DNA from: Gemmatimonas phototrophica
GTDB taxonomy: Bacteria > Latescibacterota > UBA2968 > UBA8231
Direction: 5' to 3'
DNA: 64,000 nucleotides
NCBI GenBank assembly: GCA_945861755.1
Contig: CAMAVQ010000009.1
Location: 1 to 64,000 of the forward strand
Part shown: one piece after another, positions 21,638 to 29,966 of the stretch
Position numbering within the stretch: position 1 is the first letter of the stretch
Layout of the letters: every line of letters starts with the position of its first letter
Made by a program: the position numbers and the translations under genes
Notes under the pieces: model-generated
The model's input: only the letters and a program-made list of their open reading frames with translations
What the model was told of the DNA's origin: nothing
The model's database searches: none

Positions 21638-22120
21638 ATGAAAAAGCGCTCGGTACTGGTGTTCTGCCTGATCAGTGCCCTGGCCTCCGTGGCCGGGGCC
21701 CAGCCGACCCAGCTTTTCTACGTGTTCTCCGCTGAGGACGCCGCCCAGCGCCTGGGGGCCCGCCACCTCGACCAGTGGAACGAGGATCACGGCCGGCCCC
21801 TGCGTCTAATAGGGCTGCTGCAGCACCAGGGCGATCTAGCGGTTATGGAGCAGTTGCGCCTCCAAGACGGGATTTCTTTCCAGCTCATGTGCGCCACTGC
21901 GGCCCGGCAAAATCCGGGGTTGCCCCCCGAACTGTCCGGCCATCTCGACAGCCCGGCCGGCTTTGTGCTGCTGGTCGATGCCAATGGCCGCGCTGCGGCC
22001 TCGGGTGCCGGTGCCCAGTTGAACCAGGTGCTGGACCAGGCCGCCCTGTTGCTGGGGGGCCTGGCTGCTACTGAGGTAGACGAGAGCACCTGGGGCAAGG
22101 TCAAGGAGATCTTCAAATAA
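21638..22120 (+). CDS. Small secreted protein with WGKVK C-terminal tail
   Basis: 160 residues. A signal peptide (MKKRSVLVFCLISALASVAGA) is followed by a compact domain of unknown family containing YVFSAEDAAQRLGARHL and DSPAGFVLLVDANGRAA, which has a faint thioredoxin-like feel but no CxxC. The last residues VDESTWGKVKEIFK resemble the tail of the unrelated CBM9-like protein at 26437 (VESETWGRVKASFDK). A UUCG-capped terminator follows the gene at 22153-22172, closing the galU operon. Confidence 0.6.
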   Translation: MKKRSVLVFCLISALASVAGAQPTQLFYVFSAEDAAQRLGARHLDQWNEDHGRPLRLIGLLQHQGDLAVMEQLRLQDGISFQLMCATAARQNPGLPPELSGHLDSPAGFVLLVDANGRAAASGAGAQLNQVLDQAALLLGGLAATEVDESTWGKVKEIFK

Positions 22121-25304: not shown

Positions 25305-26180
25305 ATGGTTAAGCGGGTCTTACATATCGGAATACTGTTGTCAGCTCTATGTACACCAATGGCTTGGGGAGAAAATGTTCCTTTGCGCGCCACGGTCGTC
25401 GACCGGATGGGCAATCAGCATCAGGTGAGCAAGCTGAGTTATCACGGCCGTCCCGAGCTGGAGTATTTTATCGATGACCAGCCGCACACGGCCCAACTGG
25501 CCGATATCGCCCGTTTCCGGCTGGACGGGGAGCGCGAAGACGAGGAACAGCAGATTTCCATAACTTGGCGCAATGGCGGCACGGAAACCGGCAGGATTTT
25601 CACCGGAGGGTCGGGGATCTCCCCCAGCCAGGATGCCCTGGGCAGTGGCCAGATTTCCAACCGCCTGAGCGGGGTGACCGACCTGGGTCCCTTTTTCATC
25701 CTGCTCAGCGATGTGACTGAAGTGATTCTCTCCCATGCCGATTCTCTCGCCCCGACCAAGGTGCCCAAGCTCAAGGTGACGGTGATCGACTTGGAGGGCC
25801 GGCGCTTCGAGGTCAACAAGCTGCGCTACCGCGGCCAGCTCCGCCTGGACTTTTCCCAGGGTCGCAAGCAGCGCTCAATCGACCTGGCCAAACTTGCCAA
25901 GATCGAATTCGCCGAAGAGCGGGATCCGGGCACCGAGTTCCGGTCCATTACCCTCACGTTCTGGTCCGGGAAAACCATGCAGGGGAACGTGGACGCCAGC
26001 ACAGTGCGCCTGGGCGGGGAAACCGATCGGATCTACCAGTTGCGGGTCGGGGCCGCTTTTACCGGAGAACTCGCCGAGGGGCCTTTTGCCATCGGCCTGC
26101 AAGATCTCAAGCTGATGCGGTTCTACCCAGAAGAGGAGGGAGGGGCGGAAGTCCCCGCTAGGCCTGCAAATACTCGGTAA
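25305..26180 (+). CDS. Secreted protein with two copies of one beta domain
   Basis: 291 residues with a signal peptide (cleavage near AWG-EN). Residues about 27-98 and 154-226 are internal repeats: LRATVVDRMGNQHQVSKLSY with ISITWRNGGTETGRI against LKVTVIDLEGRRFEVNKLRY with ITLTFWSGKTMQGNV. Each repeat is followed by a strand-rich segment ending in xLxDLxxL/VxxF-type hydrophobic runs. No known family was recognised. A GAGGGGG ribosome site precedes the ATG by about five bases. It shares the promoter at 24466 with the preceding lipoprotein. Confidence 0.65.
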   Translation: MVKRVLHIGILLSALCTPMAWGENVPLRATVVDRMGNQHQVSKLSYHGRPELEYFIDDQPHTAQLADIARFRLDGEREDEEQQISITWRNGGTETGRIFTGGSGISPSQDALGSGQISNRLSGVTDLGPFFILLSDVTEVILSHADSLAPTKVPKLKVTVIDLEGRRFEVNKLRYRGQLRLDFSQGRKQRSIDLAKLAKIEFAEERDPGTEFRSITLTFWSGKTMQGNVDASTVRLGGETDRIYQLRVGAAFTGELAEGPFAIGLQDLKLMRFYPEEEGGAEVPARPANTR

Positions 26181-26198
26181 GCGGAAGTAATATTTTTC

Positions 26199-26227
26199 TT
26201 GACACTTTGCGCTCTTTGTTTTAACAT
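26199..26227 (+). promoter_or_regulatory. Sigma-70-type promoter of the CBM9-like gene
   Basis: Perfect TTGACA (26199-26204), a 17-base spacer and TAACAT (26222-26227, four of six), in an AT-rich island. It precedes a leader of about 200 bases. Confidence 0.7.
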
Positions 26228-26262
26228 CTTCCAATAAATATTATACATACGAGGGTATTAGA

Positions 26263-26298
26263 TAGAGGTCGCAATGCCCGAGGCGGCCTCTAATTTTT
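26263..26298 (+). terminator. Terminator-like hairpin in the leader (possible attenuator)
   Basis: A 10-bp stem (26263-26272 with 26283-26292, one G-T pair) is followed by AATTTTT. It begins roughly 30 bases after the predicted transcription start and well before any gene, so it could abort or regulate transcription of the gene at 26437. Confidence 0.55.
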
Positions 26299-26327
26299 GA
26301 ACGTTTTGCCAAAACCTCGCAGTGCGT

Positions 26328-26340
26328 GAAAGGAGGTGAT
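26328..26340 (+). promoter_or_regulatory. Extended Shine-Dalgarno-like element far upstream of the gene
   Basis: GAAAGGAGGTGAT matches 13 bases of the complement of a typical 16S rRNA 3' end. It is 97 bases upstream of the CBM9-like start and only two bases from the leader ATG. This recalls the STAB-SD element known from Bacillus cry3A mRNA, which binds ribosomes and protects the transcript. Confidence 0.5.
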
Positions 26341-26425
26341 GCGGGCGTTGTTGTTCTGGATTAACGCAGCGAAATTGCAGGCCATCTGGAGGGTCCCAGA
26401 TGGAGTCTTACTTCAACCCTATTAG
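26339..26425 (+). CDS. Putative 28-codon leader peptide
   Basis: ATG at 26339 directly after the extended ribosome-binding element opens a 28-residue hydrophobic/basic peptide (MRALLFWINAAKLQ...). Its TAG stop lies inside the next gene's ribosome site (TAGGAGGAA), 11 bases before that gene's ATG. The spacing from GGAGG to ATG is unusually short (two bases); TTG at 26348 in the same frame is an alternative start. An 8-bp hairpin (26382-26389 with 26396-26403) lies within it. Translation could open or couple the downstream site. It may also be chance, with the purine-rich element acting as an RNA stabiliser. Confidence 0.35.
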   Translation: MRALLFWINAAKLQAIWRVPDGVLLQPY

Positions 26426-26436
26426 GAGGAAATGCA

Positions 26437-27330
26437 ATGAAGCGTACCCTTCTCACCATGGCCATGGCTCTTGGCTTGGCCTCGGGCGCCAGCGCCCATA
26501 TCGGCGACAAGATCTATCTGATCTTCGAGATTCCCGATGCGGATCGTGCGAGCATCGATCTGAAGGATGGCAGCGTCGCCGATTGGGAAGACGTGGTCGG
26601 TGATCCTTCGCTGGTCGCCACCGATTTCTACGCCGATCCGACCGTGGGCGAGGGCGCCCAGTACGATCCGGCCGACTTGGACTACCGCATCTGGCTGGGC
26701 TGGAACTCGACCGACAGCATCCTGTACCTGGCCCAGGAGCGGGTGGACAACGTGTACATCAACACCTACCCAGGCGGCAACGTGGGCGATCTGTGGAGCT
26801 ATGACTCCGTCGAGTTCATGTTGGACGGCGACCACACCGGTGGCGACTATACCGGCTCTGCCGATGTCAACTGGACTGCCGATGAGCAGAAGCTCAACAA
26901 CAACCGCACTGCCCAGCAGTACCTGGGCATTGCCACTTCCCCAGATGGCAAGACGGTCGGTTACCTGGGCGCCGGCGCCGGTTGGGTCAATGAACTGCCT
27001 TATGCCGACGGCGGTGGCGGTGCCACCGGCGAAGGCCCGACCACCACGGTTATGGAGCTCTACGTCACACCCTTCGACGACCTGATCTGGAACAGCCCCG
27101 GCGACAGCAAGCCTTCCGCTTTGGCTTCCGGCAAGATCATCGGTTTCCAGCTCTCGATCCCCGACTTCGACACTGCTCCTCAGGCATACCGTGCCTTCCA
27201 CACCCTCACCGGTCAGGCCGCTACTTGGCGTTATGCTGAGCGCTTTGCGGACGGTCGTTTGATCGGCTCCGGTGTCACTGCCGTGGAGAGTGAGACCTGG
27301 GGTCGCGTCAAGGCTTCCTTCGACAAATAA
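26437..27330 (+). CDS. Secreted CBM9-like protein, probably abundant
   Basis: 297 residues. The signal peptide (MKRTLLTMAMALGLASGASA) is followed by a domain resembling carbohydrate-binding family 9/DOMON-like sheets: DGSVADWEDV, LGWNSTDSILYLAQERVDNV, YDSVEFMLDGDHTGG and GKIIGFQLSIPDFD. A Gly-rich loop sits near ADGGGGATGEG. The C-terminal tail VESETWGRVKASFDK is shared with the small secreted protein at 21638. A consensus promoter, a long structured leader, a strong AGGAGGAAA ribosome site and its own terminator suggest a major, separately regulated extracytoplasmic product. Whether it binds glycan is an inference from the fold. Confidence 0.72.
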   Translation: MKRTLLTMAMALGLASGASAHIGDKIYLIFEIPDADRASIDLKDGSVADWEDVVGDPSLVATDFYADPTVGEGAQYDPADLDYRIWLGWNSTDSILYLAQERVDNVYINTYPGGNVGDLWSYDSVEFMLDGDHTGGDYTGSADVNWTADEQKLNNNRTAQQYLGIATSPDGKTVGYLGAGAGWVNELPYADGGGGATGEGPTTTVMELYVTPFDDLIWNSPGDSKPSALASGKIIGFQLSIPDFDTAPQAYRAFHTLTGQAATWRYAERFADGRLIGSGVTAVESETWGRVKASFDK

Positions 27331-27491: not shown

Positions 27492-29966
27492 ATGAGGTTC
27501 GGGATCCGCTGCATGGTCGCATTGGCGCTGGTGGTCCTGACTCAGGGCCCGGTGAGCGCCGAACTCTCCACTTTCTCGCTGCCCGGTCAGAGTCTCACCT
27601 GGCGCGATGCCGAGGAAGGCTCCCTGTCGGTCTCCCGCTATCTAGAACCCATAGATGTCGAGCGCTTCAGCGACGGGATTCTGCCCATCTACCCGGTCCG
27701 CATGGTGTCGGTGCCGATTCTCGCCCTTCAGGGTACCGACTCTACCCTCAGCACAGCGGGCGATTCGGTCCTCTTTGCTTTTTCCCGCCATCTGGCCCAG
27801 CAGGAGGTGGTAGCCCTAGAGCAGGTGGTGCTGGAGGATGGCACCATCGTCCCGCCTGGGCAGGTGCTCATCCCCAGGTGGGGCAATTTCCCCCGCCAGT
27901 TGAGCCAGGTACAGCTGCTGCGCCAGGCCGGCATCACGGAGATTCCGGCCATGATCAACGTGGCCGAAGCCTACCCATTCCCCCCGGTGGCAGACAAGTA
28001 CAACAAGGGGCTCACGATCACTTGGCAGACCATCTGGGAACGGGCGATGACCTATGACCGGGCCCAGGGGTTCATGCAGACCATCTTCGACAACGACCCC
28101 AGCACCCACTTTGAGCGCATCGACAAGGTGGGCCAGGACGTGCAGCAGACCTGGACCTTGTACATTGATCTGGGCCGCTATTTTCCGGTGCGCCTGGTGC
28201 GTTTTTATCCCACCTCCGGACTGCCCAAGGTCTCCTCCTACACCTTGCTCTCGGGTGCGGTGGGCACCGAGAAGCATATTGCCGGCCTCAATATCGACGA
28301 CCCGACGGTGGGCCAGATCGGCTTTCCCCGTTTTGAAAACATGTCCCGGATCCTGCCCACCTTTGTGGTCGATAGGAGCGAGCCGATCAACCTGGACGAC
28401 ACGGTGTCGGTGCTCTTCGATCCGTCCAAGAAGGTGCGCTTCTCCCGCCTCGACTTCAGAACCTCGCTGGATTATGATCTGGCCGAGGTCGAGTTCTTCG
28501 GGGATGGTTTCCTGCCCGAAGCCTCCTACGTGACCAAACCCCTGTCCCTACCTTCGGCCACTCTAGGCCGCATCTTCTGGGACGAGGAAAAGTTGGGGAA
28601 CCCGGCCAAGTCGCGCGCCATCGTGCGCATGCAAACCGGGGTGAATCAGGAACCCCAAGTGATGTTCCGGCTCAACGATTTCGGGGTGCCGGTGGAGTGG
28701 AAGGAGGGGGTGGTCAAGGTGCTCGACCGTCGGCCTGGGTCCCAGACCTTGGGCCAGTCCGTCGACCTGAACGATCCGAACTTCAACCTGGTGGTGCGCG
28801 AGATCTTCAGCGACCTCTCCGATGCCGAGCGCGCGGCGGCGCGTCTCACCCGCGTCGAGTATCAGGCCCTGCCCGGCAACAAGCGTTCCACCGTCGAACC
28901 CGATCTGGTGTTCTGGAGCGGCGCCCAGCCAGTGGAGAACGGCGGGTTCATCAAGGCTCCGGGCGGGCGGCCTTACTTCCAGATCCAGGTCGAGTTCAGC
29001 AGCGACGACCCCGAATCGGCCACGGCCATCCGCAACCTGCGTTTCGAATACTCCGCCCCCCAGACCATCAGCCAGATCTACGGCGAGATTGCCCCGGCCA
29101 CCAACGTGAGAGCCGGCCAGGACACCACCTTCGTGCTGGCGCTCAAGGCGTTGCTTGAGCAAGACAACAAGGGCTTCAACCGGCTTCAGGTCTTCACCCC
29201 CACCCGGATTGAGCGGATCGAATCCGTGCAGGTCGACCAAGGCGGTGGAGTACTTCAAGCGTTGGTGCAGAGCCAGGGTTCTCCCCAGGAGGGTCAGTTT
29301 CAGCAGCTGTACACCGACGACGAGCAGTTTGTCCTGGCCTTTCCCAAGTTGGGCCCGGACCTGGGCGGCAGCACCCGCGAGGTGTTGCTCAAAGTGCGCT
29401 TCAAGGCCCGGGTGATCGATTTTCGCACCAATTTCAAGGCCAATGCCCTGCTCGACTCCCTGAGCACCGGGCGCCGGGTCTTCAACACCAATGGCATCGT
29501 CGCCTTGGCCGACGTCGGCACCGATACCCTGGCCCTGTTCCTGCCCCAGGGTCTCGAAGCCCGGGACGTGGTGAACTTTCTCCAGACGGACCAACTCGAA
29601 GACAGCAATAGCCTGGCAGTGACCGCCGACCTCTCGTCCCAGAGCAAGGAACTGGTGACCAAGCTCAAAATGGCCCCCAACCCCTTTACCCCCAACGGCG
29701 ACCTGGTGAACGACCAGTTGCAGATTTCCTTCGATGTGCAGCGCCTGACTGCGGCCCGGCCGATCAAGGTCGAAATCTTTGATTTGAGTGGTCAGCGGGT
29801 GCGGAGCATCGAGCAGGAAGCTGTTTCGGGGGGGTATACCCAGAACTGGGATGGTCGCGATGGCAAAGGTAATCTGGTGGCTCCAGGGTTGTACCTGGTG
29901 CGGGTTGGGGTCGATGCCGACGCCGCCAACTCGGCCCAGGTGCGGCTGGTTTCCGTGGCGTATTGA
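27492..29966 (+). CDS. Secreted discoidin-like protein with FTPNGDG/FlgD-like C-terminal domain
   Basis: 824 residues with a signal peptide (MRFGIRCMVALALVVLTQGPVSA). A discoidin (F5/8C)-like segment around residues 190-245 has FDNDPSTHFE and LYIDLGRYFPVRLVRFYP. A sheet region follows (AIVRMQTGVNQEPQVMFR), then a motif common to the group (YQALPGNKR), and FRTNFKANALL before the C-terminal module from about residue 730: NPFTPNGDLVND, VEIFDLSGQRVRSIE, NWDGRDGKGNLVAPGLYLVR, final VSVAY. The third motif residue is GDL instead of the usual GDG. GGGGAG seven bases before ATG sets the start. Likely exported to the surface; binding partner unknown. Confidence 0.75.
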   Translation: MRFGIRCMVALALVVLTQGPVSAELSTFSLPGQSLTWRDAEEGSLSVSRYLEPIDVERFSDGILPIYPVRMVSVPILALQGTDSTLSTAGDSVLFAFSRHLAQQEVVALEQVVLEDGTIVPPGQVLIPRWGNFPRQLSQVQLLRQAGITEIPAMINVAEAYPFPPVADKYNKGLTITWQTIWERAMTYDRAQGFMQTIFDNDPSTHFERIDKVGQDVQQTWTLYIDLGRYFPVRLVRFYPTSGLPKVSSYTLLSGAVGTEKHIAGLNIDDPTVGQIGFPRFENMSRILPTFVVDRSEPINLDDTVSVLFDPSKKVRFSRLDFRTSLDYDLAEVEFFGDGFLPEASYVTKPLSLPSATLGRIFWDEEKLGNPAKSRAIVRMQTGVNQEPQVMFRLNDFGVPVEWKEGVVKVLDRRPGSQTLGQSVDLNDPNFNLVVREIFSDLSDAERAAARLTRVEYQALPGNKRSTVEPDLVFWSGAQPVENGGFIKAPGGRPYFQIQVEFSSDDPESATAIRNLRFEYSAPQTISQIYGEIAPATNVRAGQDTTFVLALKALLEQDNKGFNRLQVFTPTRIERIESVQVDQGGGVLQALVQSQGSPQEGQFQQLYTDDEQFVLAFPKLGPDLGGSTREVLLKVRFKARVIDFRTNFKANALLDSLSTGRRVFNTNGIVALADVGTDTLALFLPQGLEARDVVNFLQTDQLEDSNSLAVTADLSSQSKELVTKLKMAPNPFTPNGDLVNDQLQISFDVQRLTAARPIKVEIFDLSGQRVRSIEQEAVSGGYTQNWDGRDGKGNLVAPGLYLVRVGVDADAANSAQVRLVSVAY

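What the first reader, a model, noticed from the sequence alone, without database searches (positions are those of the whole stretch)
26199..26436. Layered leader upstream of the CBM9-like gene: attenuator-like hairpin, 13-base anti-16S element and coupled 28-codon ORF
Within 210 bases after a consensus promoter there is a terminator-like hairpin (26263-26298), GAAAGGAGGTGAT (26328-26340), which pairs with 13 bases of a typical 16S 3' end, and a 28-codon ORF. The ORF stop (TAG, 26423-26425) is embedded in the next ribosome site TAGGAGGAA. An 8-bp hairpin lies between. Known parallel: the STAB-SD element of Bacillus cry3A mRNA. Such elaboration for one small secreted protein suggests very high, regulated output.
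Basis: partly seen in the sequence, partly recalled or inferred. Interest (0 to 1): 0.66.

Follow-up and report, generated by a model that had tools for sequence, protein, structure and literature searches.

The report
Distal 16S-pairing element in mRNA leaders
An uncultivated Latescibacterota bacterium carries, far upstream of the normal ribosome site of an exported sugar-binding-type protein, a near-perfect match to the tail of ribosomal RNA, and relatives keep it in front of exported proteins, mostly without a usable start codon, which suggests a parking place for ribosome subunits on the messenger.

Summary
The sequence features are real. GAAAGGAGGTGAT (26328-26340) is fully complementary to the 16S 3' end read in a same-genus genome and lies 109 nt upstream of the start codon. 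It is not an isolated curiosity: all 4 exact GAAAGGAGGTGA sites in the 4.39 Mb genome lie 77-109 nt upstream of genes for exported proteins, in sense. In five ortholog sets from the genus its core is invariant, and in four it is the longest invariant block of the leader. The arrangement recurs in distant families of the phylum. The 28-codon ORF is not conserved (28, 69 and 4 codons in three species), its ATG stands only 2 nt after GGAGG, and most sister elements have no usable start. The 'attenuator' stem is partly conserved, its T-run is not. Best reading: a distal, non-initiating 30S docking site that works like Bacillus STAB-SD. It cannot be filed as STAB-SD proper: RNase J, the nuclease STAB-SD blocks, was not found in four family genomes; RNase E/G and RNase Y were. 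High output is not shown. Eleven of 22 orthologs of this gene lack a strong distal element. Stabilisation versus ribosome standby remains open.

The parts
26199..26227 (+). sigma-70-like promoter TTGACA-17-TAACAT; predicted transcript start about 26234, 94 nt before the element
   Evidence: TTGACA kept in G003 and G004
26263..26298 (+). hairpin (arms 26263-26272/26283-26292) plus T-run 26294-26298; stem partly conserved with pair changes, T-run not conserved
26328..26340 (+). distal 16S-complementary element GAAAGGAGGTGAT; duplex with the 16S tail -25.4 kcal/mol, rank 1 of 187 positions; gene's own SD -11.6
26342..26346 (+). CGGGC directly 3' of the element, could pair with GCCCG 26276-26280 in the loop of the first hairpin; invariant in three species, so untested by covariation
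26339..26425 (+).
26382..26403 (+). 8-bp hairpin CCATCTGG/CCAGATGG, stem invariant in three species
26423..26431 (+). ordinary Shine-Dalgarno region TAGGAGGAA of the exported-protein gene
26437..27330 (+). exported CBM9-fold protein, 297 aa, signal peptide, folded core about 25-279, low-confidence C-terminal tail TAVESETWGRVKASFDK

Best explanation
The 13-base element is a distal ribosome-subunit docking site in the untranslated leader. Shown: it is complementary to the 16S tail, conserved, placed 76-112 nt before the start codon in the genus sets checked, and mostly without a start codon at a usable spacing. Inferred: a 30S subunit binds it by extended 16S pairing without starting translation, and the parked subunit shields the leader of these exported-protein mRNAs from decay, here presumably against attack of the RNase E/G or RNase Y type rather than RNase J. 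Initiation then happens at the ordinary, weaker Shine-Dalgarno site next to the gene. I put 'functional non-initiating 30S-binding site' at about 0.8 and 'its main effect is mRNA stabilisation' at about 0.5.
For: (1) All 4 exact GAAAGGAGGTGA sites in G000 lie 77-109 nt upstream of an exported-protein gene, in sense; a rough chance estimate for placement alone is 3e-6. (2) In five ortholog sets (2-4 species each) all ten AAGGAGGTGA columns are invariant, against 43-82% of the 60 columns upstream and 48-71% of those between element and SD; in sets A-D it lies in the longest invariant run of the leader. (3) In 16 of 16 leaders tested it is the strongest 16S-pairing position, -21.7 to -25.4 kcal/mol; the gene's own SD is -6.9 to -14.7 in 14 of them and -19.6 and -21.5 in G057 and G050. 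(4) Phylum-wide recurrence: of 153 of 193 GAAAGGAGGTGA sites examined in 60 genomes, the script put 46 at a distance before a signal-like gene (23 of 48 in f1, 9 of 25 in f8, 6 of 15 in f5, 2 of 22 in f6/f9, 6 of 43 in f2-f4). A stricter test on 41 candidates (those of f1, f8, f5, f6/f9, and the window) left 30 with no start codon 3-12 nt after GGAGG that opens 10 codons or more. (5) In family f8 the predicted transcript start is 13-17 nt before the element in 5 of the 7 leaders with a promoter-like site, which resembles the 5'-end position described for cry3A (passages of PMC4113751). (6) RNase E/G and RNase Y are present in G000.
Against: No expression, decay or toeprint data. In one search, 11 of 22 orthologs of this gene show no distal site stronger than -12.6 kcal/mol (most of genus g7), 4 of 22 are intermediate (-15.8 to -17.7, near what shuffles can reach) and 7 of 22 are strong. 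In the sister families f2-f4 the same 12-mer is mostly an ordinary proximal SD (26 of 43). In the window itself the predicted transcript start is 94 nt upstream of the element, so a subunit there would leave a long bare 5' end unless the transcript is processed, and an in-frame TTG stands 11 nt behind GGAGG. PMC3997798 (passages read) says that in E. [quoted passage not shown] The element is no more accessible in predicted folds than in shuffled contexts (0.50 versus 0.51 unpaired, 33 leaders).
Confidence: 0.5

Rival explanations
1. Ribosome standby: the distal element loads 30S subunits that then slide past the intervening hairpin to the weaker proximal SD, raising initiation rather than protecting the mRNA.
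For: The element pairs far better than the gene's own SD in most leaders and, in set A, a hairpin lies between. PMC3936740 (abstract and passages) reports that distant standby modules support high translation and that hairpins are pushed aside.
Against: Standby sites as described there work through single-stranded surface; a 12-13 bp 16S duplex (about -22 to -25 kcal/mol) would have to be released first. Distances of 76-112 nt are long.
Confidence: 0.25
2. Leader peptide: the element is the SD of a short ORF whose translation is coupled to the gene or shields the mRNA.
For: An ATG follows the element at 2 nt in G000, G003, G004 and G009. Some sister sites have an ATG at 7-9 nt (L218, L224, L297, L300). 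The reference list of PMC3997798 cites a mini-ORF ribosome site that protects an mRNA from RNase E (title seen only).
Against: ORF length 28, 69 and 4 codons in three congeners; ATG 2 nt from GGAGG; 30 of 41 distal candidates tested have no usable start with 10 codons or more.
Confidence: 0.12
3. Binding site for an RNA-binding regulator such as CsrA (GGA motifs; motif recalled), not for the ribosome.
For: CsrA is encoded in G000, G003, G009 and G057; the element holds AAGGA.
Against: Conservation covers GAAAGGAGGTGA, matching the 16S tail base for base, beyond a GGA core. No CsrA hit in G018, yet G018 has leaders with GAAAGGAGGTA (L088, L093) and GAAAGGAGGTGA (L226, though with an ATG at 3 nt).
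Confidence: 0.07
4. Ordinary or chance: a strong SD copy left over from rearrangement, with no function of its own.
For: The 12-mer is often a strong proximal SD in sister families, and a strong distal site is missing in 11 of 22 orthologs.
Against: Invariant core in five separate ortholog sets whose surrounding leaders have diverged; 193 versus 17 control hits.
Confidence: 0.06

Closest known systems
STAB-SD of Bacillus thuringiensis cry3A mRNA
   Same: SD-like sequence complementary to the 16S tail in the untranslated leader, near a 5' end 129 bp before the start, not used for initiation (PMC4113751 passages)
   Different: RNase J was not found in four family genomes while RNase E/G and RNase Y are present; the element lies 94 nt inside the predicted transcript in the window; several exported-protein genes per genome carry it
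Strong-SD and polypurine 5' stabilisers of Bacilli (ermC, atpE, cryIIIA leaders)
   Same: Strong SD, even without a start codon, as a stability determinant (PMC3997798 passages)
   Different: Described there for organisms without RNase E; here RNase E/G is present
Ribosome standby sites
   Same: 30S contact upstream of the real site, structure between (PMC3936740)
   Different: Standby as described does not rest on a 12-13 bp 16S duplex
Extended SD motifs of Staphylococcus aureus
   Same: Unusually long SD/anti-SD pairing (PMC13009471 abstract)
   Different: Those are proximal to the start codon
Carbohydrate-binding module family 9 (the encoded protein)
   Same: Predicted fold matches 1i82 (Z 19.6, rmsd 2.4, 186 aligned) and 7nwn (Z 20.2, rmsd 4.6, 194 aligned)
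   Different: No Pfam or NCBIfam match at the cut-offs; stand-alone exported protein with an extra C-terminal tail

Membership tests
STAB-SD element | Complementary to the 3' end of 16S rRNA | tested here: met
   13 of 13 bases against GGATCACCTCCTTTCT of G002, G018, G024, G026, G027
STAB-SD element | In the 5' leader, well upstream of the gene's own SD | tested here: met
   109 nt before ATG, 16S pairing rank 1, separate SD at 26423-26431
STAB-SD element | Does not direct translation initiation | tested here: inconclusive
   No conserved ORF, ATG at 2 nt, but an in-frame TTG stands at 11 nt in the window; not assayed
[quoted passage not shown]
   Predicted start 13-17 nt before the element in 5 of 7 f8 leaders with a promoter-like site, 35-36 nt in set D, 94 nt in the window; no transcript data
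STAB-SD element | Protects against the 5'-3' exonuclease RNase J | tested here: not met
   No RNase J (TIGR00649) match over the cut-off in any of 5 genomes; none at all in G000, G018, G009; 18.9 bits in G003 and 31 bits in G057, cut-off 400. MAGs are 73-99% complete
STAB-SD element | Raises mRNA half-life | not testable with these tools
   Needs decay measurements
Leader-peptide (uORF) control | Conserved short ORF | tested here: not met
   28, 69 and 4 codons in G000, G003, G004
Transcription attenuator | Conserved hairpin followed by a T-run | tested here: not met
   Stem partly kept (80.8% of cells paired, two double changes, not beyond shuffles), T-run absent in G003 and G004
Ribosome standby site | Raises initiation at the downstream start | not testable with these tools
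   Needs translation measurements
Known Rfam leader or riboswitch | Match to an Rfam model | tested here: not met
   No gathering match in the window, none to E 1 in 26180-26440
CBM9 protein fold | Structural match to solved CBM9 | tested here: met
   profile hit to 1i82 at E 1.3e-4

The most novel reading that the evidence does not exclude
Latescibacterota use a distal, start-less 16S-complementary site as a shared leader module for a set of exported proteins (CBM9-fold proteins that end in a common TAVExxxWGxIK tail, and others), parking 30S subunits on these mRNAs in cells without RNase J. That would be a stabilisation or mRNA-handling mechanism different in its nuclease, and possibly in its purpose (for example co-translational export), from Bacillus STAB-SD.
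Probability: 0.3. Interest if true: 0.72.

Novelty: new variant of a known kind. Interest (0 to 1): 0.52.

Why it matters
Distal Shine-Dalgarno stabilisers are established in Bacillus and explained there by RNase J. A conserved, recurrent counterpart in a deep, uncultivated phylum, in genomes where RNase J was not found, would mean either that a parked 30S subunit can also guard against RNase E/Y-type decay, or that the element does something else. Both are testable with a transplanted leader. It also gives a simple genome signature that marks a class of exported-protein mRNAs.

Tried and rejected
Codon adaptation as a sign of high output: 14 ribosomal proteins as reference; the 7 of them long enough to score (150 codons or more) gave 0.61-0.70 on leave-one-out, below the median 0.74 of 110 other genes, so the 63rd percentile of this gene says nothing. 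Sequestration of the element by a downstream anti-element: suggested by set B and by the consensus fold, but over 33 leaders the mean z was 0.00 (5 below -1, 5 above +1), rejected as a general feature. Pseudoknot GCCCG/CGGGC and the 26382 hairpin: invariant in three species, so neither supported nor refuted by covariation; two pairs of the first hairpin show double changes and 98 of 500 shuffles do as well. GTTTTG/CAAAAC hairpin: does not fit G003 (read from the alignment). First structure model (15 sequences) had pLDDT 52 and was dropped for the 33-sequence model, pLDDT 84. Rfam: nothing. Literature: 'STAB-SD' is in 31 papers, 29 listed, none naming Latescibacterota in its listing; Latescibacter plus Shine-Dalgarno gave one paper, a review on ribosomal protein trees, seen in the listing only; two wider searches listed nothing on a distal element in this phylum. 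Only these searches back 'not found in print'.

Caveats on counts. One search sorted 153 of 193 sites (48 of 48 in f1, 62 of 62 in f5-f9, 43 of 83 in f2-f4); 14 of the 153 are the antisense of the 16S 3' end. The script labelled the window's own gene 'no signal' by a hair (hydrophobicity 1.88, cut 1.9); I count it as exported by eye. At least two f1 rows it called distal (L224, L300) are better read as proximal SDs of 47-52-codon ORFs. The script's gene calls are heuristic, and signal peptides rest on a hydrophobicity rule, not on a dedicated predictor. In one search the G024 start was set a few codons inside the gene; its distal call is unaffected. RNase absences rest on incomplete MAGs. In one search the 'SD' value is the best duplex in the last 26 bases before the start. 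The chance estimate assumes one gene per 1.1 kb.

Full report
What is there. The window belongs to a Latescibacterota MAG (G000, 4.39 Mb, 255 contigs, 93.6% complete; record titles of the relatives say Candidatus Latescibacterota, Candidatus Handelsmanbacteria or Gemmatimonadetes). The gene at 26437-27330 encodes a 297-aa exported protein with no Pfam or NCBIfam match at the cut-offs; a 33-sequence AlphaFold model (pLDDT 84) matches family 9 carbohydrate-binding modules (1i82 Z 19.6, rmsd 2.4, 186 aligned; 7nwn Z 20.2, rmsd 4.6, 194 aligned). So 'CBM9-like' is right as a fold.

The element. GAAAGGAGGTGAT pairs in full with the 16S tail GGATCACCTCCTTTCT, read in a same-genus genome (G002) and in four others; the own MAG holds no 16S. 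Its duplex energy is -25.4 kcal/mol against -11.6 for the gene's own SD, and it is the strongest of 187 positions. The 13-mer is unique in the genome.

It is a recurrent leader module. Of 25 AAGGAGGTGA sites in G000, I read 6 as intergenic: 5 are distal leaders (window, C52, C115, C196, C65) and 1 is an ordinary SD; the rest fall in reading frames. Four of the five match GAAAGGAGGTGA exactly and they are the only four such sites in the genome. In G003, 4 of 24 sites are intergenic and all 4 are distal, at orthologs of G000's genes. Five ortholog sets were aligned. The ten AAGGAGGTGA columns are invariant in all five, against 43-82% of the 60 columns upstream and 48-71% of those between element and SD; in sets A-D the run with the element is the longest of the leader, in set E it ties for second. 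G004 has two copies 95 nt apart before one gene.

Spread in the phylum. GAAAGGAGGTGA occurs 193 times in 60 genomes against 17 for the reversed control. I examined 153 of these. Own family f1 (48 of 48): 23 distal before a signal-like gene plus the window's own, 9 proximal SD, 9 antisense of the 16S end, 4 inside ORFs, 2 other. f8 (25 of 25): 9 distal, 13 proximal, 3 other. f5 (15 of 15): 6 distal, 6 proximal, 3 other. f6/f9 (22 of 22): 2 distal, 13 proximal, 7 other. f2-f4 (43 of 83): 6 distal with signal, 4 distal without, 26 proximal, 4 antisense 16S, 3 other. A stricter test on 41 distal candidates from f1, f5, f6/f9 and f8 (the window and both L305 copies among them) keeps 30 without a start codon at 3-12 nt that opens 10 codons or more: 16 of 24, 4 of 6, 2 of 2 and 8 of 9. 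The window itself fails that strict rule because of an in-frame TTG at 11 nt.

Against universality. Looking only at orthologs of the window's gene, 7 of 22 have a strong distal site (-21.2 to -25.4), 4 of 22 an intermediate one and 11 of 22 none. Many genus g7 orthologs have another leader with a shared block (GACCTACGGAGGCAA). The element is thus gained and lost.

The ORF and the attenuator. The 28-codon frame is 69 codons in G003, where it runs 113 nt into the gene, and 4 codons in G004; the shared ATG is 2 nt behind GGAGG. The upstream stem keeps 80.8% of its pair cells with two double changes, not beyond shuffles (98 of 500), while the T-run is missing in both congeners. The 26382 hairpin is invariant in its stem and so untested by covariation. 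No general anti-element was found.

Mechanism. What is shown: complementarity, conservation, position, lack of a conserved ORF. What is inferred: a 30S subunit docks without initiating. The best known precedent is STAB-SD of cry3A, where an SD-like sequence that does not direct initiation binds 30S and stops RNase J1 (PMC4113751, passages). Here RNase J was not found in four family genomes (G057, of another family, has only weak partial matches, 31 bits against a cut-off of 400), while RNase E/G was found in 4 of 5 genomes and RNase Y in 5 of 5. A review says that in E. [quoted passage not shown] So the likeness stands and membership does not. Predicted transcript starts lie 13-17 nt before the element in 5 of the 7 f8 leaders with a promoter-like site, 35-36 nt in set D, and 79-96 nt in G003, the window and G009, so in some genes the element is near the 5' end and in the window it is not unless the transcript is processed. 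Standby loading is the main rival (PMC3936740).

Output. Nothing here shows high expression: codon adaptation to ribosomal proteins does not separate even those proteins.

Verdict.

Noticed in passing
26437-27330 and 21638-22120; loci L320-L323, L185: A C-terminal tail TxVExxxWGx[IV]K is shared by CBM9-fold exported proteins and by proteins that look unrelated (window 21638-22120 ending TEVDESTWGKVKEIFK; G047 L185). 32 distinct hits among 7792 stop-to-stop ORFs, 0 with shuffled tails. The tail is low-confidence in the model. Looks like a sorting tag.
   Followed up: partly
G016:C18:63343-72323 (L069): Tandem array of about ten CBM9-like genes or fragments in one relative.
   Followed up: no
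L005 (G000:C26:10958-10970): GAAAGGAGGTGGT followed by a 9-codon frame (ATGGAATCCACAGGGAGGTCTACCACCTAA) and hairpins; similar GGAATCCA text follows elements in f4 genomes (L190, L286, L287).
   Followed up: no
L043-L048, L052, L057 upstream of the ortholog: Genus g7 orthologs have a different, longer conserved leader (GCCCTCTACAGCGGCTCCGAT ... GACCTACGGAGGCAA) that looks structured; Rfam was not run on it.
   Followed up: no
L196, L227: In two genomes the 12-mer lies 123-143 nt before genes that read like 2-isopropylmalate synthase relatives (recalled from the N-terminus), in L227 as the SD of a short ORF: possible amino-acid leader.
   Followed up: no
27492-29966: Large exported protein with a C-terminal FlgD_ig/CHU_C match (type IX secretion-like) right behind the CBM9 gene.
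   Followed up: no
L305 (G004:C189): Two GAAAGGAGGTGA copies 95 nt apart before one exported-protein gene.
   Followed up: partly
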